IMG/VR virus record: IMGVR_UViG_3300030090_005562
Location: 84,762 to 148,761 of that record
Strand: one strand, 5' to 3'
Source of the DNA: a virus
DNA length: 64,000 nt
The notes under the pieces were generated by a model. The model did no database searches. It had not been told where the DNA came from and was given only the letters and a program-made list of their open reading frames with translations. Below are positions 35,358-61,596 of this stretch, in pieces. The translations under genes were made by a program, and so were the position numbers. Numbering within the stretch: position 1 is the first letter of the stretch; the number at the start of each line of letters is the position of its first letter.

Positions 35358-37604
35358 ATGAAAATCGCACAGGATTACGGTAAGACTAGGACAAGTGGGG
35401 CAGTAGTAAAGGGTTCGTTCACTATGGACGAATCACCAGAGGCGTTCGAGATTCTTTCGGACGGTCTTTATCCAAACAAAATCAAAGCGGTTGTGCGTGA
35501 GTTATCCACAAACGCTGTAGAGTCTCATATCACCAGACATAAACAGCTTACTGGTGAGGAAATTACAAAAGAGGTCATCGACTCTCTGCCACAGTTTGAG
35601 ATTCATCTTCCGACGACTATGGAACCTCATTTCTCTATACGAGATTTTGGTACGGGTCTTAGTCACGATGACATTATGAATATGTACACAACGTATTTTC
35701 GTTCTACCAAACGAGATACGAATGATGTTGGAGGATGCTTGGGTCTAGGTTCCAAGTCTCCCTTTGCATACTCAGATAACTTCAGCGTAGTCAGCGTTCA
35801 CAAGGGGCGCAAGACCTGTTACAATCTGACGATTGACAATGGGTATCCCACTCCATCGTTTTTCGCCAACGAAGATGGTAGTCCGGTATCTGAGGAAACA
35901 AGCGAACCAGATGGTCTGCTCATTACCATACCATGCAAGTCCTCTGACGAGTATGAATGGGAGAATGAGGCACAGATAATCTACAAATACTTCCGTATCA
36001 AGCCGAAGTTTATCGGTAAGCAAGTACATATTCATTCTCCAGAATATATTGTAGAAGGTAATGGTTGGGGTATTCGAGAGCGTGACCACAAGGGACCGCG
36101 AGCTATCATGGGTAGCATCGCATACCCCATCAGTCGTACCTCGATTAAATGTTGGGATGATACGGACAAAAAAGATTCTAGCCTTGAGTCTATACTGCGA
36201 GCAGACATTGACTTGTACTTTCCACTTGGAGTATTAAAGATTACTCCCAGTCGTGAGGCACTTGGCTACAAACCGTCTACCCAGAAGAACATCAAGGCTA
36301 AGTTGACCTCTGTGTATGACGAATTAAGAGAGCAGGTGAGTACGTCTTTCGATGAGTGTCAGAGTCTATGGCAGACTCGTTGCCTCGCCAATGAGTTATT
36401 CTATATGGGTAATGCCGCACTACGTTCTGTAGACAACGTGTTCGATGTTGCTGCTGTTAAATGGAATGGTAAAGAGATTGGTGGGCGTGACGTTAATCTG
36501 AGAGATTTCCGTGGCTCAGTACACAGGTTTTACCTTAAATCCTACTATAGTCAGGAGGATAAGTGTCACCACCAGAGGGACTTCACATACCTCATGGCAA
36601 ATCCAGAGATTACATTCATCGAGGCAGATTTGAATGTGGGTAACTTTGCCAGGGCGAGACATGCCGTAAAGTCTGGAAAATATACAGAGGCAGTTGTTCT
36701 GGAATATAATGCCGGTAACGGCAGACGAAAGGCTTTATTAGACAAGATAGGGATTCTAGAGTCTGACATTGTGAAAGCCTCTGAGCTTGAGCGTCCACCG
36801 AAACGTGCGAAGAACAGCGGTGGAGGATTCAGTTCTGGTAAGACTGGTCAACTGTTCAAGATGACTCCAAGGCTCGGTGGTCACAACAAGAATGACTACT
36901 GGCAAGAAGAAACTGTAGACCTAAGCGAGGGCGGCATATATGTTGAAATGACAAGATGGGATGCCAAGGACGATACCGGCGACCTTATTGAGCCATCGGA
37001 TGTAGCAGAAGGTATAATCAAACTCCAAAAGTGTACCGGCAAAAAGGTCAAGGTCTATGGTTGTCGTAGCCAAATGGCAAAAGAGTTTGTCGAGGCAGAT
37101 AACTGGGAGGACTGGTGGACATACTCTCAGCGTGAAGGCGAGGCAGTCTTTAAGACTAAAAATGCCAAACACGCTCAGATTGCATCAATAATTAGCGAAC
37201 TTGGCGAAGAACAACTGCTCAGAGACTTGCTTGAGAATGTAAGTCTTAACAGAAGGGTTCCTAGCCCAATGGTTGATTTGCTCAAGGATTTCAAAAAGAT
37301 GGACGAGTCAAACGAGATTCTTGAGAAGCAGGGTGTGTCTTGGGGTGCTATCGTAGGTCTATCTGTGATTCTGAACATCAAGATGCCGTCCGTACCTGAG
37401 AGAATGAACCTCAAGTCTAGGTGCGAGGCTATCCTGCAAGAATACCCGATGGTGGTCGCGGCGTATGAGTCTGCCGGTCGATATTACTACGGACAAGGCT
37501 GGAAGAAGAATTTTCTGAGCAGCACAAACTGCAAGAAGATGATGGGTGACTATGTTAAGCTGGTTGACGACAATCGAGAATGTCAGAAGGGCTTGACAAA
37601 GTAG
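35358..37604 (+). CDS. rIIA: rIIA-like GHKL ATPase protein
   Basis: This 748-residue protein has an N-terminal GHKL ATPase domain: VVRELSTNAVESH (N box, about 46-58), IRDFGTGLSHDDIMNMYTT (G1 box, about 94-112) and GGCLGLGSKSPFAYSD (G2 box, about 125-140). This matches T4 RIIA, which protects against prophage-encoded exclusion and acts at the membrane together with RIIB. The rIIB-like gene follows directly. AGGGAGAG precedes ATG 35358. Confidence 0.88.
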   Translation: MKIAQDYGKTRTSGAVVKGSFTMDESPEAFEILSDGLYPNKIKAVVRELSTNAVESHITRHKQLTGEEITKEVIDSLPQFEIHLPTTMEPHFSIRDFGTGLSHDDIMNMYTTYFRSTKRDTNDVGGCLGLGSKSPFAYSDNFSVVSVHKGRKTCYNLTIDNGYPTPSFFANEDGSPVSEETSEPDGLLITIPCKSSDEYEWENEAQIIYKYFRIKPKFIGKQVHIHSPEYIVEGNGWGIRERDHKGPRAIMGSIAYPISRTSIKCWDDTDKKDSSLESILRADIDLYFPLGVLKITPSREALGYKPSTQKNIKAKLTSVYDELREQVSTSFDECQSLWQTRCLANELFYMGNAALRSVDNVFDVAAVKWNGKEIGGRDVNLRDFRGSVHRFYLKSYYSQEDKCHHQRDFTYLMANPEITFIEADLNVGNFARARHAVKSGKYTEAVVLEYNAGNGRRKALLDKIGILESDIVKASELERPPKRAKNSGGGFSSGKTGQLFKMTPRLGGHNKNDYWQEETVDLSEGGIYVEMTRWDAKDDTGDLIEPSDVAEGIIKLQKCTGKKVKVYGCRSQMAKEFVEADNWEDWWTYSQREGEAVFKTKNAKHAQIASIISELGEEQLLRDLLENVSLNRRVPSPMVDLLKDFKKMDESNEILEKQGVSWGAIVGLSVILNIKMPSVPERMNLKSRCEAILQEYPMVVAAYESAGRYYYGQGWKKNFLSSTNCKKMMGDYVKLVDDNRECQKGLTK

Positions 37605-40824: not shown

Positions 40825-40944
40825 ATGACTATAATTATGAAGATTGCTGTGTGGCTTGGCATATTAGTTGGAGCCTATCAGCTTTGGAAGGGAAGAAAAA
40901 ACCCAATTCAGTTTGAAGAAAAAACTATAAAGATAGAAATATGA
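40825..40944 (+). CDS. 39-residue membrane peptide
   Basis: MTIIMKIAVWLGILVGAYQL opens one membrane helix followed by a charged tail. GAGAGG precedes ATG 40825. It overlaps the GMP reductase start (ATGA). Confidence 0.5.
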   Translation: MTIIMKIAVWLGILVGAYQLWKGRKNPIQFEEKTIKIEI

Positions 40945-42104
40945 ACATATCACAAGATACAAAATTAGACTTCTCAGACGTTCTATTAACTCCCGCATGG
41001 TCTATCAATGCGTCTAGGTCTGACGTAAACATGGAGCGTGTATTTAATGGATTCTACCACTCAGACAAAGAGTGGAAAGGTTTGCCCATTATGATTGCAA
41101 ACATGGACACCACAGGAACATATCCTATGTGGGATGAAATCCATAAATGGGATGCGATAGTCTGCCTAGACAAAAGGTATAACATATACAGATATGCAGA
41201 CTCTCCAGGCCCACAGTTGATAGAGAGATATGTCAAGGCTAACGAGCTAATGTCCAGAACAGGTTGGATAAGCACAGGGATTACTGAGCCTGATATAAAG
41301 AGGATGGAAGAATTAAGCTATGTGTCCAATTACAGAATCCGTCCAGGCGAAGAAGTCTGCTTATCAAAGAGACCTGACCCACAAAACAGGAGGGTCCATG
41401 CTATTCAGCCGAGTATCTGCGTAGATGTTGCAAACGGTTACTCTCAGTATTTTGTAGAGAAGGTGGAGTACATACGCTCTCTATTTCCTAATTCAATAAT
41501 TATGGCTGGCAACGTAGTCACACCAGAGATGGTATTAAAACTAATTCATGCCGGTGCAGATATAGTCAAGATAGGCATAGGGCCAGGGAGTGTTTGTACC
41601 ACCAGATTAAAAACAGGCGTTGGTTATCCTCAGTTCTCTGCTATCGTCGAGTGCGCTAATGCTGCACACGGAATCAAGAATCCAGACAACGGTAGAGTAG
41701 GAAGAATATGTGCTGATGGAGGATGTACTACCACAGGAGATATTTGCAAGGCACTTGGGGCCGGAGCAGACTTTGTAATGATTGGAGGCATGGTTGCTGG
41801 AACCGACCAATGCAACGGAAAGTGGAGTACAGATATAGCTGTAGGAAAAAAAGTATTTCAGTTCTATGGGATGTCGTCTTACGAGGCCCAAGACAAATAT
41901 GATAGCAGAAAGAAACACAGAACGAGCGAAGGAAAGCTCGTAGAGATTCCAGCGAAAGGGTGCGTCAGCACTGTCATGCAAGACATAGTTGGTGGAATAA
42001 GAAGTTGTTGTGCGTACATCGGAGCCACCAGTATAAAAGATATTCATCGATGTGCAAACTTTGTTCGAGTTAATAATACACATAATAAGATTTTTGGAGG
42101 TTGA
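40941..42104 (+). CDS. guaC: GMP reductase
   Basis: This enzyme reduces GMP to IMP with NADPH. The 387-residue IMPDH/GMPR-fold protein has KLDFSDVLLTP near the start, the catalytic loop IGPGSVCTTRLKTG (213-226, Cys219), ADGGCTTTGDICKALGAGAD (phosphate-binding) and FYGMSS. No CBS insert is seen, as expected for GuaC rather than IMPDH. GuaC in a phage suggests rebalancing of purines, and MazG follows directly. Confidence 0.85.
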   Translation: MNISQDTKLDFSDVLLTPAWSINASRSDVNMERVFNGFYHSDKEWKGLPIMIANMDTTGTYPMWDEIHKWDAIVCLDKRYNIYRYADSPGPQLIERYVKANELMSRTGWISTGITEPDIKRMEELSYVSNYRIRPGEEVCLSKRPDPQNRRVHAIQPSICVDVANGYSQYFVEKVEYIRSLFPNSIIMAGNVVTPEMVLKLIHAGADIVKIGIGPGSVCTTRLKTGVGYPQFSAIVECANAAHGIKNPDNGRVGRICADGGCTTTGDICKALGAGADFVMIGGMVAGTDQCNGKWSTDIAVGKKVFQFYGMSSYEAQDKYDSRKKHRTSEGKLVEIPAKGCVSTVMQDIVGGIRSCCAYIGATSIKDIHRCANFVRVNNTHNKIFGG

Positions 42105-46864: not shown

Positions 46865-47974
46865 ATGAAAAAGGCAGTCGCATTCAAAAATTATACAATC
46901 GGCCGAAACTGCGGGGAGCGTGGTTGGCTCACCCTCTCCGTCAGTAATTTTAAAGTTATGCTTATTGCGTTGATGTTGTTTTCTGGTATGTCCCTCACCT
47001 CTTCAGCGGAGGAAATTGAAGGGCCGCTCGCCCCATACCTTCAAAGCATTTCCGTGACAATTCGCGCCGACAGAGGACAGGGCTCTGGAGTTCTCGTTAC
47101 CAGAGAGATGATTGGTCTCGATGGCAAGCCTGTCAAGGTAAACTTTGTTTGGACAGCCGCTCATGTTTTAAGCCGACTTAGAAAAACTAGAACCGTAATT
47201 GACAGTAAGACAGGTCAATCAAAAACATTAGTAGAGTTTAGGGATGCAGAGATTGTTCAAGAGATAGTCGAGAACGGTCGTAGAGTTGGCGAAAAGAAAA
47301 TGCTCGCCAGTGTCATCAAGTATAGCGATGCCGATGAAGGTCAAGACCTAGCCCTGCTGATGGTAAGAAAAATTGGCATGACTGAAAAGAGTGCGGTGTT
47401 CTACGACGAGGCAAACGAGATACTTCCTATCGGAACAAAAGTCTTTCACGTTGGCTCTCTACATGGTCAATTCGGCGCAAACAGCATGACTGATGGAATC
47501 ATGTCTCAGATTGGTAGGGTACTAAATATTGGCAGCGCTGGTGGCGGCGTTGTGTTTGACCAAACAACCGTCAACGCTTTTCCTGGCAGTAGTGGTGGCG
47601 GCGTGTTCGTCGCCGGAGACTCAGAGGAAACCAAGAAGTTTCGAGGTCAATACTGTGGCATGATTGTTAGAGGTGCAGGTGAAACTTTCAACTTGATTGT
47701 TCCCATCAGGCGAATGAGAACTTGGGCAAGGGCGGCTGGATGTGAGTGGGCGATTAAGAACGACCCAAAAATCACTCCTCCTCTCTCTGAAATATACAAG
47801 CCTGGATGGGTTATTGAGGACACTGGAGGTGTCTGGAACGCCAAGGCCTACGCAGTAAGAGAAACCGCTTTCTTTTTCTGGCTTAGAGATAGAAGCAAAG
47901 TTGCTTCAACGATACTCAAGCCAGGAGTCGAAGGAATTAAATCGGAAACTTACATCGAGATAATGCCTAAATGA
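46865..47974 (+). CDS. Secreted trypsin-like serine protease
   Basis: This 369-residue protein has an N-terminal extension, a signal segment (about 31-48, ending SLTSSA) and a chymotrypsin-fold protease. The catalytic triad is visible: His100 in WTAAHVL, Asp161 in GQDLALL and Ser243 in FPGSSGGGVF. The C-terminal 100 residues are a Trp-rich extension. ATG 46957 (residue 32) could be the start of an alternative form. A secreted phage protease may act in the periplasm or on the host surface. Confidence 0.85.
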   Translation: MKKAVAFKNYTIGRNCGERGWLTLSVSNFKVMLIALMLFSGMSLTSSAEEIEGPLAPYLQSISVTIRADRGQGSGVLVTREMIGLDGKPVKVNFVWTAAHVLSRLRKTRTVIDSKTGQSKTLVEFRDAEIVQEIVENGRRVGEKKMLASVIKYSDADEGQDLALLMVRKIGMTEKSAVFYDEANEILPIGTKVFHVGSLHGQFGANSMTDGIMSQIGRVLNIGSAGGGVVFDQTTVNAFPGSSGGGVFVAGDSEETKKFRGQYCGMIVRGAGETFNLIVPIRRMRTWARAAGCEWAIKNDPKITPPLSEIYKPGWVIEDTGGVWNAKAYAVRETAFFFWLRDRSKVASTILKPGVEGIKSETYIEIMPK

Positions 47975-53296: not shown

Positions 53297-53917
53297 ATGC
53301 CTGTAGTTATGAAGGACATTGATTTTAACAAGAGAAACAAGAACGATTATGAAAACAATTCAAACGAGATGTATTCTTTAAAACAGTATACTAACATTGC
53401 CAAGAAGTGCATATCAAAGTTTTCCGGAGATGGTGTATCTCACTCAATGTTAAAAAGCGAAGATGCAATTTCTCATGTCGCTGAACATATCATGTGGGGT
53501 CACGTAAGGTGGCGCGAAGATGGTGGAAGGGCCTTAAAAAGCTACCTTAATCAGTGTGCGATATGGGCTATAAAGTCGTGGAAGACAAAGATTTATAAGA
53601 ACGAAGATATTGCATCTCTTAATTACTGCAAACCAAGCGAAGCTGCCGGAAGAGAAACACAGGCGTATCAAAATGTACAAGATAAGAAGTGCAAAGAGCC
53701 GTTTGAGCTTCTTTATAATAATAATTTGTCAGAAATGAAATCTCTCATTGAGAGCAAATGCTTGACAAAACTTCAAAGTAAATGCCTTTACGAAAGATAC
53801 GTCGAAGGAAAAAAACTTAGGCAAATAGCAGAAACACTTTGTGTGAGTAGACAGGCAGTAAACCAACACATCAGTAAGGCTGTTAAGAAGTTGAGGAAAG
53901 AAAATGGGATTTGTTAG
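53297..53917 (+). CDS. Sigma-factor-like protein (regions 2 and 4)
   Basis: This is a 206-residue protein. Residues 35-105 look like region 2 (AISHVAEHIMWGHVRWREDG; LNQCAIWAIKSWKTKI). The C-terminus (about 155-200) is a region 4 helix-turn-helix: LTKLQSKCLYERYVEGKKL, IAETLCVSRQAVNQHISKAV, LRK. A strong TAGGAGG precedes ATG 53297. It is a candidate middle or late transcription factor of the phage. Confidence 0.78.
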   Translation: MPVVMKDIDFNKRNKNDYENNSNEMYSLKQYTNIAKKCISKFSGDGVSHSMLKSEDAISHVAEHIMWGHVRWREDGGRALKSYLNQCAIWAIKSWKTKIYKNEDIASLNYCKPSEAAGRETQAYQNVQDKKCKEPFELLYNNNLSEMKSLIESKCLTKLQSKCLYERYVEGKKLRQIAETLCVSRQAVNQHISKAVKKLRKENGIC

Positions 53918-55725: not shown

Positions 55726-56405
55726 CATCTAGCAGAAAAACGAACAGCGAGCTTATAAACGATGTTCACAATTTTAGCTTAAATGTAGAGACAAGAGAAA
55801 TCTTTCTAAATAGTCACATCGCAGATTGTGAAGAAGAAGCTGGCGTAGATTGGCGTATGGCTACAAAGTTTAATAAGAACATTAGACTTTTAACATCTGG
55901 CCCACAAGCAGAGCAACCAATACTCATACACATGCATACTGTGGGTGGTAATTGGGAAGACGGTCTTGCTATATACGACATAATTAATTCCTGCACAAAT
56001 ACACACATAACTATAATTGCATACGCTCATGCTAGGTCAATGAGCAGCATTATCTTTCAAGCCGCAGACACCAGAATATTCATGCCAAATTCTATATGGC
56101 TAATGCACATGGGTGACATGGGTTTTGATGGTCAGGCTCAGTCATTTGAGGCAGAAGCGGAGTGGGCTAAAAAAGACCACGATAGAATGCTTGACATATA
56201 CACTGAATCGGCGTATGGTAGTGTAGCTTACAAAGGAAAAAGCAGAAAGCAAATTAAAAACTTTATAGACAGGGGTCTACGGCTAAAGCAGGAATGGTAC
56301 ATGTCTGCCAGAGACGCAATAGAACATGGCTATGCAGACGCTGTTTTTGGAGACCCTGGATATGAAAGTATGGAAGCAATTAAAAAAATAGGAAAAGAAA
56401 CTTGA
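55722..56405 (+). CDS. ClpP-like serine protease
   Basis: This 227-residue protein has the ClpP/crotonase fold: PILIHMHTVGGNWEDGLAIYD (about 66-86), YAHARSMSSIIFQAAD with the nucleophile Ser106, and IWLMHMGDMGFDG with His129. In phages such proteins often act as prohead proteases. Here a separate protease-scaffold is present in the head operon, so this may be an assembly chaperone-protease or host-directed. It is coupled to 55195 by an ATGA overlap. Confidence 0.82.
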   Translation: MTSSRKTNSELINDVHNFSLNVETREIFLNSHIADCEEEAGVDWRMATKFNKNIRLLTSGPQAEQPILIHMHTVGGNWEDGLAIYDIINSCTNTHITIIAYAHARSMSSIIFQAADTRIFMPNSIWLMHMGDMGFDGQAQSFEAEAEWAKKDHDRMLDIYTESAYGSVAYKGKSRKQIKNFIDRGLRLKQEWYMSARDAIEHGYADAVFGDPGYESMEAIKKIGKET

Positions 56406-56896
56406 AGCACGTTACCGACGAAGAATTTGAAACAGCATATAATAATCAAGACAACAAAAATATAATAAATGCTGTAACAAAAAAATACGCAAATAAGCTG
56501 TCGAAGGATACTCAGACCTCTTGCGGCCTTCATGGATTATGGAGGTGCATACAGAGTCATGACGATAGCTACGGTAGAAAGTTTACAACCAGCCTCTTCA
56601 TACACGTTGACTGGGAATGTAAAAGAGAAATTAGCTATCTGAACAGAAAGAAGCTTGGTCAGTTGGGAGACTCCGATGATGATATTGTGTCTCCGGTTCC
56701 TAGCGGCGAAGTTTCTGAGATACTAGAATCTTTGCCCGAGAGAGAGAAGGAGATGATGTATCAAAGATTCTATGAAAACAGGACTCTTGAGGAGATTGGC
56801 GAAGGGCAAGGCTACAGCAAAGAAGCCGCTAGGCAAAATATAAACAAGATTATATCTAGGCTACGAGAAAATATCTCTGAAGATTTTGGTGTATAA
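56402..56896 (+). CDS. Sigma-factor-like protein (regions 2 and 4)
   Basis: This is a 164-residue protein from a TTG start that overlaps the ClpP-like stop. Residues 35-80 resemble region 2 (GLHGLWRCIQSHDDSYG; LFIHVDWECKREI). The C-terminal half is region 4: ILESLPEREKEMMYQRFYEN, LEEIGEGQGYSKEAARQNIN. Small size and placement next to late genes fit a T4 gp55-type late sigma factor. This is the best candidate reader of the GGTGTATA motif. Confidence 0.75.
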   Translation: MKHVTDEEFETAYNNQDNKNIINAVTKKYANKLSKDTQTSCGLHGLWRCIQSHDDSYGRKFTTSLFIHVDWECKREISYLNRKKLGQLGDSDDDIVSPVPSGEVSEILESLPEREKEMMYQRFYENRTLEEIGEGQGYSKEAARQNINKIISRLRENISEDFGV

Positions 56897-56944: not shown

Positions 56945-59701
56945 ATGCCCAGAGAATCATTCATAGTTGCAGTTAGTGGACAACCCACTAAAAATCTAGG
57001 CGCAACAGTAGTAAACGCCGGAAATACACCTAATTTTGGCGACTCTACAAATAATAACGCTGGCTTTGGCGTTCTGACAGGCTCTAATACTGGAAAAAGT
57101 TCCGGTTCAAAAGTGGTCGAAAGAGAAGGCATCCCTCAAGCAAGTGGACAACTTCAAGCCGGTCCTGGAGTTCAGTCAGCCGTATTTACAGACCCATTTG
57201 CCGGCTCTCCCCTTGGGCAAGTTATTGGAAAATCATTTAGCTGGAAAGACCAGTATACCGGAAGACTTCCTGTTCGATTTAATCATGTGCAGTCAAAGTA
57301 TCCAAATATTGCTAATGAGGACACGTACAGTAAGAAGACCATCAGTCGCGGCACTCAAAGTTGCGTTTATCGAGATGACGGTGCTTTGTATGGCTCAAAT
57401 GTTTCATTAACAATGGGCTCTGCTGGAATGGTTTGCGCTGTTGGCGCCCCAAGCGGCCAAAATGCAACAAGAGGCACTGTTGCCCCGTATTGGCCACACC
57501 GCAGGAATGAGGGCTTTGTCGAGGTTCAAGAATTCAATAAGCCTAAAACCTTGACACTTGGAGATATCAGTAAAGATGGATTTTTAGTTAAAGACCCCAA
57601 CGACGATTGGTTTTCATGTGGTTATGCAGGAAAATCATTATGCACTCAGAGTGGACCACTTGAATTCAAGGGGCAAGCACTCAGATACAGCGATTTAGGC
57701 TCTGATAGACTATCGGGATATCCAAAACATGGAATTACAGCTTCTGGAACGGCTTTCGGTCACGCTGTAACATTTAATTCTGGTGGCACAAGAATGGCTG
57801 TTGGCGCTCCTTATGCGGATGGCGAAAGAGGAGAGGTTACAGTTTATGAATTTACAAGCGGCTCAGGCACAAAAGGCGAATGGATTAGAGTTGGCGCTCC
57901 AATCACAGGCAATGGCCTACCAAACGATAGATTTGGTTGGGACGTTGCGCTTGATGGCCCTGGCGATATTGTATTTTGTGGCGCTCCTCGTCCTGGTGGA
58001 ACTGGTTATGTTGCAAAATTTGAATTACAAGGAACGTATCCTGGAGGCGCGACTTGGAAAAGAGATAATCATGGCGGCTCGGTTTCAGGCGTTGCGCCGC
58101 GCGATAAATTTGGATACTCCATAAGCACTAACACAGAAGCAACAATACTGGCGGTTGGTGCGCCTAACGCATCTGGTACTCGCGGAACCGCAGAGTGTTT
58201 CCACAGAACAGGTGTTGGCGGAACAGTCTCATATCCATGGAAGGCTTTGACGAGAGGCGCCACTGGCGATGTTCAACGTGTTGTAGGAACCGCATCTGGA
58301 GAAATGCTTGGTTGGTCAGTTTCATTGATGTATAACAGTAAGGCCGCGCTTGATGCAGGTAGATTTAATCCTATGATGGCTGTTGGTTCTCCGTTCTATA
58401 GCAAGAGTGTTGCTGAGTATGACTTTAGCAGGAGAACATTTGCGGAGAGAGCTGCTGGAGTACCAATTTATGACGGAGACCCTGTTATTGGCGGAGCGGG
58501 TCCAGAAGCTGCCGAACAACAATCACTTCGTATTGGGTATGCTTACGACAAGGTAGGCCTAACCTGCGAAGGCCGAGTAACAGTCTGGCAGTTTAACAAA
58601 GTTCCGGCTCACAGAAAACACGGTTACACTACTCTTGAGTGGTTACCCAAGGGTAAATATAGCGCAAGAAAGATGATGGTGGGGCAGTATCCTCAAAGTG
58701 AAATGGGATACTCAGTTGCACTTAGCAAGACTGGCGACTACCTTGCTGTAGGCTGTCCTGGCACAGATGGAACTTTTGATGTGTCTGACTGTGAACAGTT
58801 GACTGCTATGACTAAGGCTGACTTTGAAGGTGGTGTTACTAGCCTTGTGGCGGCAGACCCAACCGCTGAACACGAGAAATACAAATACAACTACGTCTAC
58901 AGACCAGATTCTCGTTCAGAAGAGTGTTACAAGAAAGATGGGTTTTACCTTCATAAGGCCGAGGGCATAGGCGGCGGCGAAGTCGCACCAGGATTCTTCA
59001 AAGCTGCAAGCCTGCGAAGCAAATACGGTATCGGCTCTGTAAAAACTTTCCGATATGTGTGGGAAGGCGAAGCTGGAGATGCGGCAAGAAGAGAACATTA
59101 CTTAGGCTCAGATAGAGAGGATGTTTGGATTAAGTATGGGCCAACGATTCCTGGTACGGAAAGTCCTGTATATGATTACACTTATCGAGGTCCTGAACAT
59201 GGCAGAAGATACGCTCGCCCAAACTTCCAAGACCTTCAAGGCTTAGTGAAAATGCCTAAGCATTCTCATCACGAAAGATTTGGAACAGACGTTTCTATCA
59301 TCGACGTTATATCTCCGGTTGTAGCTGTTGGCGCACCCTTTGCTCAGGACCGTCGATATAACTCTGAATTTGTACGGGAGGGAGAGGATATCCAGCGCGG
59401 AAAATATACGGTTACTGGAAGAGTAGACATCTACGCCGCAACACCAACTAGACTTAGAGACAACGTAATGCCATTTGGAGGTGGAGCTTCAGCCCCTGCT
59501 GGAGGCCCATTGTCAAGCAGAACGAAAACTAAGTTTGAATATGATGCTGCTGGCTCTGTTGTCGCTTCTTCTGGAGGTGGTAGAGAAGCCTACTTCATAG
59601 CTCCTAATGTTTCTGGCTCTGGACTGGCTGATGACAATGCTTTGAAGACAAGCAGAAAAACATTTGGTACAGGTGGAATAAACTTCACATCGAGCGACTA
59701 A
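56945..59701 (+). CDS. Large virion protein with integrin-like FG-GAP propeller
   Basis: This is a 918-residue protein. The N-terminal 60 residues hold the motif GATVVNAGNTP...NAGFG shared with the next gene. The body has at least six FG-GAP-type repeats: an FG or LG turn, then a strand, then AVGAP or AVGSP (FGHAVTFNSGGTRMAVGAP; FGWDVALDG; FGYSISTNTEATILAVGAP; LGWSVSLMYN; MGYSVALSKTGDYLAVGCP; FGTDVSIID). These build an integrin-alpha-like beta-propeller. It is probably a tail or capsid-surface protein for host attachment. Upstream are a late motif and a GGAG site. Confidence 0.8.
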   Translation: MPRESFIVAVSGQPTKNLGATVVNAGNTPNFGDSTNNNAGFGVLTGSNTGKSSGSKVVEREGIPQASGQLQAGPGVQSAVFTDPFAGSPLGQVIGKSFSWKDQYTGRLPVRFNHVQSKYPNIANEDTYSKKTISRGTQSCVYRDDGALYGSNVSLTMGSAGMVCAVGAPSGQNATRGTVAPYWPHRRNEGFVEVQEFNKPKTLTLGDISKDGFLVKDPNDDWFSCGYAGKSLCTQSGPLEFKGQALRYSDLGSDRLSGYPKHGITASGTAFGHAVTFNSGGTRMAVGAPYADGERGEVTVYEFTSGSGTKGEWIRVGAPITGNGLPNDRFGWDVALDGPGDIVFCGAPRPGGTGYVAKFELQGTYPGGATWKRDNHGGSVSGVAPRDKFGYSISTNTEATILAVGAPNASGTRGTAECFHRTGVGGTVSYPWKALTRGATGDVQRVVGTASGEMLGWSVSLMYNSKAALDAGRFNPMMAVGSPFYSKSVAEYDFSRRTFAERAAGVPIYDGDPVIGGAGPEAAEQQSLRIGYAYDKVGLTCEGRVTVWQFNKVPAHRKHGYTTLEWLPKGKYSARKMMVGQYPQSEMGYSVALSKTGDYLAVGCPGTDGTFDVSDCEQLTAMTKADFEGGVTSLVAADPTAEHEKYKYNYVYRPDSRSEECYKKDGFYLHKAEGIGGGEVAPGFFKAASLRSKYGIGSVKTFRYVWEGEAGDAARREHYLGSDREDVWIKYGPTIPGTESPVYDYTYRGPEHGRRYARPNFQDLQGLVKMPKHSHHERFGTDVSIIDVISPVVAVGAPFAQDRRYNSEFVREGEDIQRGKYTVTGRVDIYAATPTRLRDNVMPFGGGASAPAGGPLSSRTKTKFEYDAAGSVVASSGGGREAYFIAPNVSGSGLADDNALKTSRKTFGTGGINFTSSD

Positions 59702-59705
59702 GTTC

Positions 59706-59718
59706 GGTGTATACAATA
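59706..59718 (+). promoter_or_regulatory. Late-type promoter motif
   Basis: GGTGTATACAATA starts four bases after the propeller-gene stop and about 80 bases before the next structural gene. Confidence 0.58.
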
Positions 59719-59785: not shown

Positions 59786-60406
59786 ATGGCATCACAAGCT
59801 GTAACAAGTGGAAAGTCAAAAAATAATGGCTCCACTATTGTAAACGCTGGTAATGTACCAGTAACAAACAAGACTATTAATGACGCTGGTTTTGGTAAAG
59901 TCATTGGTGACGGCGAAGGTCGTTACAAAGGCACTCCAGGTAACCGCAAGCAGAGAACTCCTTCGGCAGGTAACTTTAGCGCGTTCAGCAATGGCGGCGT
60001 TATCACTGCCAAGGGAAGCGGAACGTTTGCCTATGATGGTAAAGCTGGCAAATTCATTGGTATTAGGCTTACTGAGTCGATTAACAATGTTGACAACAGC
60101 ACCCTGCTTTCTGGCGGCAGTGCAAAGGGACAGTTTAAAGGTTCGATTCACGGACTTGAATCTTACAGAACTCTTCCGAAGTTTACAACCAATGCAGACG
60201 GTTCGTATGCGTCCACCTCTTCTGCTGGTGGTTCAGATACCGACTACATTGATTCTGCCGGAAATGGTTCGACTGCATCTAGCGATTCGGCTGCTAATCC
60301 CACTAGAGCAATTCCTGGCGAATTGGTCTACACGGATACGTCGAAGGCAAGAAGCGGTTCCTTGGCATCTCCGAAGCAGGACGACTACAAGGCCAAAACT
60401 GGTTAA
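59786..60406 (+). CDS. Putative virion surface protein sharing the anchor motif
   Basis: This is a 206-residue protein. Residues 14-40 (GNNGSTIVNAGN-like; DAGFGKVIGDGEG) match the N-terminus of the propeller protein, suggesting a common virion anchoring element. The rest is Ser/Gly/Thr-rich and low in hydrophobics, as in extended surface or fibre proteins. TATGGAGAAATAAAT precedes ATG 59786. A strong terminator follows. Confidence 0.62.
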   Translation: MASQAVTSGKSKNNGSTIVNAGNVPVTNKTINDAGFGKVIGDGEGRYKGTPGNRKQRTPSAGNFSAFSNGGVITAKGSGTFAYDGKAGKFIGIRLTESINNVDNSTLLSGGSAKGQFKGSIHGLESYRTLPKFTTNADGSYASTSSAGGSDTDYIDSAGNGSTASSDSAANPTRAIPGELVYTDTSKARSGSLASPKQDDYKAKTG

Positions 60407-60431: not shown

Positions 60432-60467
60432 GGCTCGCGTTTCGGCGCGGGCCTTTCTTTTTTTTTA
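60432..60467 (+). terminator. Rho-independent terminator
   Basis: GGCTCGCG pairs with CGCGGGCC (one G-U) around TTTCGG, followed by TTTCTTTTTTTTT. Confidence 0.9.
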
Positions 60468-60468
60468 A

Positions 60469-60496
60469 TTGACAAATAAGATGTTGGGTGTATAAT
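60469..60496 (+). promoter_or_regulatory. Composite promoter for leader-peptide unit
   Basis: TTGACA and TATAAT are separated by 16 bases, and the spacer end reads GGGTG so that GGTGTATAATATA is also present. Both early and late polymerase forms could use it. Confidence 0.75.
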
Positions 60497-60663: not shown

Positions 60664-60680
60664 TCTTGAGGTATTTCAAA

Positions 60681-61019
60681 GTGATAGTTAATGTTACCAA
60701 TACTGTAAAAAACGTTATAATGGTATTTATTAAGAATGGCAATATAAGTCAGTCTGTTGTCACTTTAAATTCAGGCATGATGATGAAGGCAGAATACGTG
60801 CAAAAGCAAGAAGACAACAAAGCAAATGTGCATTTAATTAATGGAACAGTTCTGCTAAACATTGACAGAGACTCGCTAGGGTATGATAAAAAAGCTAACA
60901 ATGAATACATATCTAGAAAAGAAAACGTGGGCCACAGCCCTGTTGAAACCCCAGGAGCAGTTCAAGACCCGCTCCCAAAACCAGCTATAAAAAGAAGGAG
61001 GGGTTGCTGCGGTGGATAA
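60681..61019 (+). CDS. Small beta-rich protein, paralog 1 of 3
   Basis: This is a 112-residue protein from GTG 60681 (GAGG nine bases upstream; a TTG at 60666 is an alternative). It has strands around LNSGMMMKAEYVQKQ and VHLINGTVLLNID, then a Pro-rich linker and a Cys/Gly C-terminus (RRRGCCGG). It shares its layout with the next two genes. Function is unknown. Confidence 0.58.
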   Translation: MIVNVTNTVKNVIMVFIKNGNISQSVVTLNSGMMMKAEYVQKQEDNKANVHLINGTVLLNIDRDSLGYDKKANNEYISRKENVGHSPVETPGAVQDPLPKPAIKRRRGCCGG

Positions 61020-61305
61020 AGATGTTTTTGAAATCATAGTAACAGAGAACTTTGATGCAAAACAAGTATTAATAAGTATGGTCAACGGAGGCATAGACGT
61101 TACTCAAGAAAATGTATCCTTTTCCCCAGGCGACATAATAAAGGTTATGTCTATCTCAAATTCAAGTGAAAAAAAATTTTTAAATATAACTTTAGAAAAT
61201 TCCTCTACAATAATGGATGTTCCATCCACTAGCATTTCATACAAAAAAGAAGCCGCAAAAAATGCATCGCGTGGATGCGGTGGATGCGGCAGAGGAAGAA
61301 GATAA
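61012..61305 (+). CDS. Small beta-rich protein, paralog 2 of 3
   Basis: This is a 97-residue protein from GTG 61012, overlapping paralog 1 by eight bases. It has VSFSPGDIIKVMSISNSSEK then FLNITLENSSTIMDVP, and ends CGGCGRGRR. Its beta-rich core resembles those of 60681 and 61330. Confidence 0.6.
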   Translation: MDKDVFEIIVTENFDAKQVLISMVNGGIDVTQENVSFSPGDIIKVMSISNSSEKKFLNITLENSSTIMDVPSTSISYKKEAAKNASRGCGGCGRGRR

Positions 61306-61329: not shown

Positions 61330-61596
61330 ATGGGACAAATTAAACTAGAGTCAACTACAACTCTTGAGTGTACTTGCGAAGATGGGACAAAGTGCGAGAC
61401 TACGTTAAACGAAGGAAGAAATATTTCTGCGGAAAAAATTATCAATATCTCCGAGACAAAGTGCGATGTTGTTCTTTCCTCCGGCAAAACAGTCCATGGG
61501 CTTGATAAAAGTCTTTTTACAAAGATTGGAAGTGTTGCAGAAGAAACACAACAGGAACAGCCGCCGAAGACAAATCCATTTTATAAATTTAGTTAG
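61330..61596 (+). CDS. Small beta-rich protein, paralog 3 of 3
   Basis: This 88-residue protein has an N-terminal CTCEDGTKC, NISAEKIINISETKCDVVL and a Pro-rich end. The strand pattern and the sequence around CDVVLSSGKTVHGLDKSLF parallel paralogs 1 and 2, though the Cys block is at the other end. Confidence 0.6.
   Translation: MGQIKLESTTTLECTCEDGTKCETTLNEGRNISAEKIINISETKCDVVLSSGKTVHGLDKSLFTKIGSVAEETQQEQPPKTNPFYKFS

What the first reader, a model, noticed from the sequence alone, without database searches (positions are those of the whole stretch)
56945..59701. Integrin-alpha-like beta-propeller in a phage virion protein
At least six FG-GAP-like blades with AVGAP strands occupy most of 918 residues under a late promoter. 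Such propellers mediate adhesion in eukaryotes and bacteria; in a phage this would be a receptor-binding or surface adhesion device.
Basis: partly seen in the sequence, partly recalled or inferred. Interest (0 to 1): 0.68.

Follow-up and report, generated by a model that had tools for sequence, protein, structure and literature searches.

The report
Phage surface protein with integrin-like propeller
An uncultured tailed phage makes a 918-residue protein with a seven-bladed, integrin-type propeller, probably late in infection and probably as a sticky module on the virus particle; similar propeller proteins are scattered among phages, so it is a new variant of a known kind rather than something wholly new.

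Summary
Pfam FG-GAP_2 scores 43.9 bits (cut-off 23). A core-blade profile finds integrin alpha chains at E down to 1e-16. An AlphaFold model of residues 140-845 (mean pLDDT 52) finds integrin alpha headpieces as its first 43 PDB matches. The integrin calcium motif is absent, so it is integrin-like, not an integrin.

"Virion protein" is inferred, not shown. For it: the gene and the next gene (206 aa) each carry GGTGTATA, the top 8-mer upstream of the portal/tail block and a candidate late promoter. The first ~80 residues (and, weakly, the last ~45) match that 206-aa family, so the propeller looks inserted into a small late-protein scaffold. An unrelated phage (L059) fuses the same propeller type to a capsid-cement domain beside its portal gene. 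Blades and ends are conserved (mostly 66-98%) while long loops vary (31-64%). Best reading: a late, virion-exposed adhesion module.

FG-GAP proteins are already annotated in phages (nt-1, UFOVP1367, Atu_ph07), so this is a new variant. Head or tail position, host and ligand are unknown.

The parts
56945..59701 (+). CDS, 918 aa: scaffold N-module, seven-bladed FG-GAP propeller, scaffold C-tail
56888..56895 (+). GGTGTATA, candidate late promoter element, starts 57 nt upstream of the ATG (overlaps the last codons and stop of the sigma-like gene)
56945..57184 (+). N-terminal module (residues 1-80), homologous to the N-terminus of the 206-aa family
57386..57544 (+). Blade 1 (residues 148-200)
57485..57739 (+). 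Variable insert after blade 1 GAP strand (residues 181-265; 31-51% identity between relatives)
57746..57898 (+). Blade 2 (residues 268-318)
57923..58072 (+). Blade 3 (residues 327-376)
58097..58264 (+). Blade 4 (residues 385-440)
58298..58660 (+). Blade 5 (residues 452-572) with variable insert 511-538 between strands 2 and 3
58691..59149 (+). Blade 6 (residues 583-735) with variable insert 623-690 between strands 2 and 3
59270..59449 (+). Blade 7 (residues 776-835)
59450..59698 (+). C-terminal tail (residues 836-918), 81-92% conserved; residues 860-904 weakly match the C-terminal part of the 206-aa family
59706..59713 (+). GGTGTATA upstream of the 206-aa gene (non-coding)
59786..60406 (+). 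206-aa gene: plain version of the scaffold; relatives in 13 further viral contigs
60432..60453 (+). Terminator-like hairpin with T tail closing the two-gene unit
   Evidence: consensus match only
56402..56896 (+). Sigma-70 region-4 protein directly upstream; candidate late sigma factor (inference)

Best explanation
The gene encodes a late phage protein in which a seven-bladed FG-GAP (integrin-alpha-type) beta-propeller is carried on a small scaffold shared with the next gene. The ~80-residue N-module and the C-tail most likely dock the protein on the particle, in place of or beside the plain 206-aa version. The rigid propeller then presents long, fast-changing loops of the 2-3 and 4-1 type on one face to bind a host or environmental surface ligand, raising adsorption. 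SHOWN here: seven repeats, family match, shared N-module, conserved core with variable loops, shared upstream motif. INFERRED: late expression, presence in virions, docking by the ends, ligand binding. NOT KNOWN: head or tail position, ligand, host.
For: Propeller: PF14312 above cut-off; 7 repeats against 0.005 in shuffles; core profile finds integrin alpha-M/6/4/L/X/5 at E 1e-16 to 1e-8; AF2 model with about four strands per blade in the confident blades, pTM 0.62, whose first 43 PDB matches are all integrin alpha chains, best E 3e-11. Scaffold: N-module shared with the 206-aa protein; an HMM of that family built without the propeller proteins matches both ends in order, N-end E 9e-5 to 3e-3, C-end weak. 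Late: GGTGTATA is among the top 8-mers upstream of the portal/tail block; 11 of 15 sites lie within 100 nt upstream of a gene against 250 of 2850 for permuted words, P 2e-9 (1e-7 without the two sites here); kept or nearly kept upstream of the 206-aa gene in several relatives and upstream of the FG-GAP gene in G001 and G003. Virion link: L059 fuses an FG-GAP_2 propeller to a domain 37% identical to an adjacent Phage_cement_2 protein, near its portal; the UFOVP1367 FG-GAP protein sits in a tail module and its C-end hits a head-decoration PHROG. Tail-type genes lie in the same locus of relatives: tail-tube-like gene in G001, RCC1 propeller with Mtd_N in L051, tail PHROG in L044. Loops 31-64% against core 66-98% identity.
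Against: No hit to any PHROG structural family and no cultured relative, so no proteomic support exists. The gene lies about 50 kb from the portal/tail block, among metabolic and regulatory genes. The C-end match is individually weak. The motif upstream of this gene overlaps the last codons of the sigma-like gene, so part of its conservation could be coding. Model confidence is moderate, low in blades 5-7 and inserts, with TM-scores of only 0.31-0.47; the blade register was partly set by the alignment.
Confidence: 0.62

Rival explanations
1. A late but non-virion protein: made with the structural genes and acting in or on the infected cell, for example blocking superinfection or modifying the surface by binding.
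For: The gene is far from the structural block and next to a sigma factor, ClpP and PhoH genes. No structural PHROG hit.
Against: No signal peptide or membrane segment is evident (highest 19-residue hydropathy 1.6, inside blade 7), so it would not reach the cell surface by the usual route. Tail-type genes share the locus in relatives.
Confidence: 0.17
2. A propeller enzyme of the virion, such as a glycan depolymerase, with the catalytic site in the loops.
For: Some phage propellers are enzymes (K1F endosialidase, own knowledge). The long inserts could hold a catalytic site.
Against: No enzyme family matches in Pfam. FG-GAP_2 and integrin matches dominate; a sialidase appears only once, at rank 48.
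Confidence: 0.08
3. A mainly structural part (connector, fibre or cement) in which the propeller is a rigid spacer rather than a ligand-binding device.
For: Propellers often serve as scaffolds. The P2 propeller of PR772 contacts the penton protein rather than pointing to the host (PMC6750898).
Against: Long variable loops beside a conserved core look like changing specificity rather than a fixed contact.
Confidence: 0.13

Closest known systems
FG-GAP_2 repeat proteins (Pfam PF14312) of bacteria and archaea
   Same: Same repeat, above the curated cut-off; about 28-38% identity over core blades; seven blades per ring in several
   Different: Those lack the phage scaffold ends and the long variable inserts seen here
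Integrin alpha N-terminal beta-propeller
   Same: Seven four-stranded blades, FG and GAP positions and spacing; best structural matches
   Different: No DxDxDG calcium sites, no strict Cage motif, no RGD, no evidence of a partner subunit
'Hemagglutinin' proteins of Agrobacterium phage Atu_ph07 and Sinorhizobium phage AP-J-162 (gp213, gp214)
   Same: gp213 is likened to human integrin 3VI3 (PMC11242549); the Atu_ph07 protein is a structural match of this model
   Different: About 375-394 aa, in phages of a different kind, listed among tail genes; no shared scaffold ends were sought or found
FG-GAP proteins of Vibrio phage nt-1, Sinorhizobium phage Phosso and UFOVP1367
   Same: PF14312 above cut-off; in Phosso and UFOVP1367 near tail genes
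   Different: No scaffold module seen; the nt-1 copy lies among small hypothetical genes
Phage receptor-binding propellers: phi11 RBP, PRD1 P2, PhiKZ gp131C
   Same: Propellers displayed on virions and thought to bind the host surface (PMC4901313, PMC6750898)
   Different: Not FG-GAP type; five-bladed in phi11 and PRD1; no sequence match here
Phage capsid cement/decoration proteins (PF09956, lambda gpD type)
   Same: In L059 such a domain carries an FG-GAP_2 propeller, a parallel architecture
   Different: The scaffold of the 918-aa protein has no match to any cement family

Membership tests
Pfam FG-GAP_2 (PF14312) | Whole-protein score above the curated cut-off (23 bits) | tested here: met
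   43.9 bits; relatives 27.9 and 40.3 bits
Pfam FG-GAP_2 (PF14312) | Tandem repeats enough to close a ring | tested here: met
   Seven repeats; most of their strands predicted
Integrin-type beta-propeller (criteria of PMC3192720) | Seven repeats with FG...P spacing of 13-20 | tested here: met
   16-18 in six blades; blade 5 has 26
Integrin-type beta-propeller (criteria of PMC3192720) | Strict Cage motif (two aromatics, G, aromatic, X13-20 P X2-15 G) | tested here: not met
   No strict match
Integrin-type beta-propeller (criteria of PMC3192720) | DxDxDG calcium motif in blades 4/5-7 | tested here: not met
   No match anywhere in the protein
Integrin-type beta-propeller (criteria of PMC3192720) | Seven-bladed fold like integrin alpha | tested here: inconclusive
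   First 43 Foldseek matches are integrin alpha, but mean pLDDT is 52 and TM 0.31-0.47
Integrin alpha subunit | Partner beta subunit and membrane anchor | not testable with these tools
   No membrane segment evident; partner not testable
206-aa late protein family (this phage group) | Homologous N-terminal module | tested here: met
   36-39% identity over residues 5-82; independent HMM E 9e-5 to 3e-3
206-aa late protein family (this phage group) | Homologous C-terminal part with PTRAIPGEL...KQDDYKAK end | tested here: inconclusive
   4-7 bits in the right order in all three; hhalign P 0.009; the final PGEL/KQDDYKAK part is absent
Known phage cement/decoration families | Match to a cement/decoration model | tested here: not met
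   No Pfam or PHROG hit
Phage receptor-binding/tail-fibre protein | Present in virion and binds host receptor | not testable with these tools
   Needs proteomics and binding assays

The most novel reading that the evidence does not exclude
Phages run a modular surface-display scheme: seven-bladed propellers of different kinds (FG-GAP/integrin type here and in L059, RCC1 type in L051) are grafted onto, or inserted into, small virion proteins that also exist in plain form next door. Here the propeller splits a conserved late scaffold at a hot spot that in relatives carries other adhesin-like genes.
Probability: 0.38. Interest if true: 0.66.

Novelty: new variant of a known kind. Interest (0 to 1): 0.52.

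Why it matters
If the protein is on the particle, it adds an integrin-type propeller to the folds phages use for surface display. The review of decoration proteins read here lists beta-tulip, beta-tadpole, OB, Ig-like and knotted helical folds and never mentions a propeller (PMC7602432). It also gives a concrete modular pair (plain 206-aa version, propeller version) that makes docking and binding testable separately, and it helps explain annotations such as 'hemagglutinin' in other phages.

Tried and rejected
First AlphaFold run with four near relatives: mean pLDDT 28, not usable; the second, with 17 sequences in blade register, replaced it. PDB search with the protein alone or the close-relative profile: nothing meaningful. 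T4-type late promoter TATAAATA: not found at structural gene starts. Sigma-70 promoter upstream of the gene: none. A membrane anchor in the long 206-family paralogs (L046, L047, L049): rejected, because the hydrophobic leader precedes the likely true start; the same leader precedes MATTTISGS in L050. Close relatives among cultured phages: none. Identifying the extra domain of the L049 long paralog by tblastn and PHROGs: no match.

Full report
OBSERVATION. The ORF at 56945-59701 (+) is intact and encodes 918 residues. Pfam FG-GAP_2 (PF14312) matches at 43.9 bits against a cut-off of 23. A simple FG...GAP pattern finds seven repeats; 5000 shuffles of the same protein give 0.005 on average and at most one. 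The blades start near residues 148, 268, 327, 385, 452, 583 and 776.

FOLD. The protein alone finds nothing in the PDB. A profile of blades 2-4 together with bacterial and archaeal relatives finds integrin alpha-M, -6, -4, -L, -X and -5 at E 1e-16 to 1e-8; this shows kinship of the repeat family, not of this protein alone. A first AlphaFold run with four close relatives failed (pLDDT 28). A second, on residues 140-845 with 17 sequences in blade register, gave mean pLDDT 52, pTM 0.62 and an order of strands that fits seven blades, four strands each where confident. Its first 43 PDB matches are all integrin alpha chains, best E 3e-11, with low TM-scores. Viral matches are FG-GAP and collagen-repeat proteins of giant viruses, the FG-GAP protein of an uncultured Caudovirales phage and the Atu_ph07 'hemagglutinin'. 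The fold is best called an integrin-type propeller, confident for blades 2-4 and probable for the ring as a whole.

NOT AN INTEGRIN. By the criteria of PMC3192720 the spacing is met in six of seven blades, but the DxDxDG calcium loops and the strict Cage motif are absent. There is no RGD and no membrane segment.

GENOME. The window is G000:84762-148761 of a 148,761-bp virus record. Portal, terminase and tape-measure genes lie on the minus strand in G000 at about 45-95 kb; the FG-GAP gene is on the plus strand, downstream of PhoH, ClpP and sigma-like genes. Three IMG/VR contigs carry the same protein at 69-80% identity; no cultured phage does.

SCAFFOLD. The next gene (59786-60406, 206 aa) shares its N-terminus with the 918-aa protein (36-39% identity over about 78 residues). 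The 206-aa family occurs in 13 more viral contigs in a similar gene order (glycosyltransferase, ClpP or another gene, often a sigma-like gene, 206-aa gene, and a ribonucleotide reductase further on in several), and no FG-GAP gene was found in the eight of these contigs that were searched. An HMM of that family, built without any propeller protein, matches both ends of all three full-length propeller proteins in order: N-end E 9e-5 to 3e-3, C-end only 4-7 bits. In several relatives a long paralog with a different extra domain sits directly before the short one. So the propeller looks like cargo on, or inserted into, a scaffold. The N-end is well supported, the C-end is suggestive.

LATE EXPRESSION. 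In 100-nt upstream windows of the minus-strand structural block alone, the commonest 8-mers are TGGTGTAT and GGTGTATA. GGTGTATA occurs 15 times in the record; 11 sites lie within 100 nt upstream of a gene, including the portal gene, the tail-tube-like gene, the 918-aa gene and the 206-aa gene, against 250 of 2850 for permuted words (P 2e-9; 1e-7 without the two sites here). The element, or a one-to-two-letter variant, also precedes the 206-aa gene in L044, L045, L050, L053, L051 and L054/L056. Upstream of the 918-aa gene it overlaps the last codons of the sigma-like gene, but in L045 the same letters end a different upstream gene, which favours selection at DNA level (inference). By contrast, TTGACA-type promoters precede genes that look early or middle.

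VIRION LINK. There is no proteomic evidence. The comparative evidence is as follows. In G001 a tail-tube-like gene (49% identical to G000:75665-76903) lies a few genes downstream of the 206-aa gene. In G003 the locus adds a second, shorter propeller-like gene with a similar C-tail. In L051 an RCC1-propeller protein with an Mtd_N receptor-binding domain follows; in L044 a 1268-aa protein hits a tail PHROG. Most telling, the unrelated phage L059 fuses an FG-GAP_2 propeller to an N-terminal domain 37% identical to a capsid-cement protein encoded next to it, close to its portal gene. UFOVP1367 has its FG-GAP protein among tail genes with a head-decoration match at the C-end.

MECHANISM. Among relatives the blades and both ends are conserved (mostly 66-98%) while four inserts vary (31-64%). 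In the model the blade 5-7 inserts sit between strands 2 and 3, hence on one face; in integrins the 2-3 and 4-1 loops form the ligand face (own knowledge). I read this as a rigid ring holding fast-changing contact loops, docked by the scaffold ends. Head decorations that aid host attachment are established for other folds (Hoc, pb10, gp8.5; PMC7602432), and propellers are known in the receptor-binding proteins phi11 RBP, PRD1 P2 and PhiKZ gp131C (PMC4901313).

NOVELTY. FG-GAP proteins are already annotated in phages, and an integrin-like phage 'hemagglutinin' is in print (PMC11242549). New here are the late scaffold with a plain and a propeller version, and the parallel cement-propeller fusion. 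Verdict: a new variant of a known kind, of moderate interest.

Noticed in passing
window 56888, 59706 and 13 further sites of the record: GGTGTATA appears to be a late promoter element of this phage group, distinct from T4 TATAAATA; two sigma-70 region-4 paralogs (53297-53917 and 56402-56896) are candidate late sigma factors.
   Followed up: partly
window, 19 TTGACA-N15-19-TATAAT sites in the record, e.g. 60469-60496: Textbook sigma-70 promoters, many 60-130 nt upstream of early/middle-looking plus-strand genes; the 60469 one overlaps a GGTGTATA (60487), so it may be read both early and late.
   Followed up: partly
L059:7272-9113: 613-aa protein of an unrelated phage: capsid-cement-like N-domain fused to an FG-GAP_2 propeller, with two plain cement paralogs beside it.
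   Followed up: yes
L051:10242-14567 (same in L052): 1441-aa protein with RCC1-type propellers and an Mtd N-terminal domain, a likely receptor-binding protein near the 206-aa family gene.
   Followed up: partly
G003:16986-17960 (L022): 324-aa second propeller-like protein with a C-tail resembling that of the 918-aa protein; no Pfam hit.
   Followed up: partly
window 60666-61019, 61012-61305, 61330-61596: Three small tandem genes; the first two end in Gly/Cys/Arg-rich tails (RRRGCCGG, RGCGGCGRGRR), seen also in relatives (SCCGRRR). Function unknown.
   Followed up: no
G000:15528-45069: Long run of more than 30 plus-strand genes, many of about 200-390 aa, some glycosyltransferases: possibly a large glycan-building block.
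   Followed up: no
G000:12845-17228: DNA polymerase in two pieces (652 and 566 aa) separated by a 242-aa ORF; in G001 the pieces lie further apart. Possible intron/homing-endonuclease insertions.
   Followed up: no
window 40941-42104, 46865-47974, 35358-37604: IMP dehydrogenase/GMP reductase-like enzyme, trypsin-like protease and RIIA-like protein encoded by the phage.
   Followed up: no
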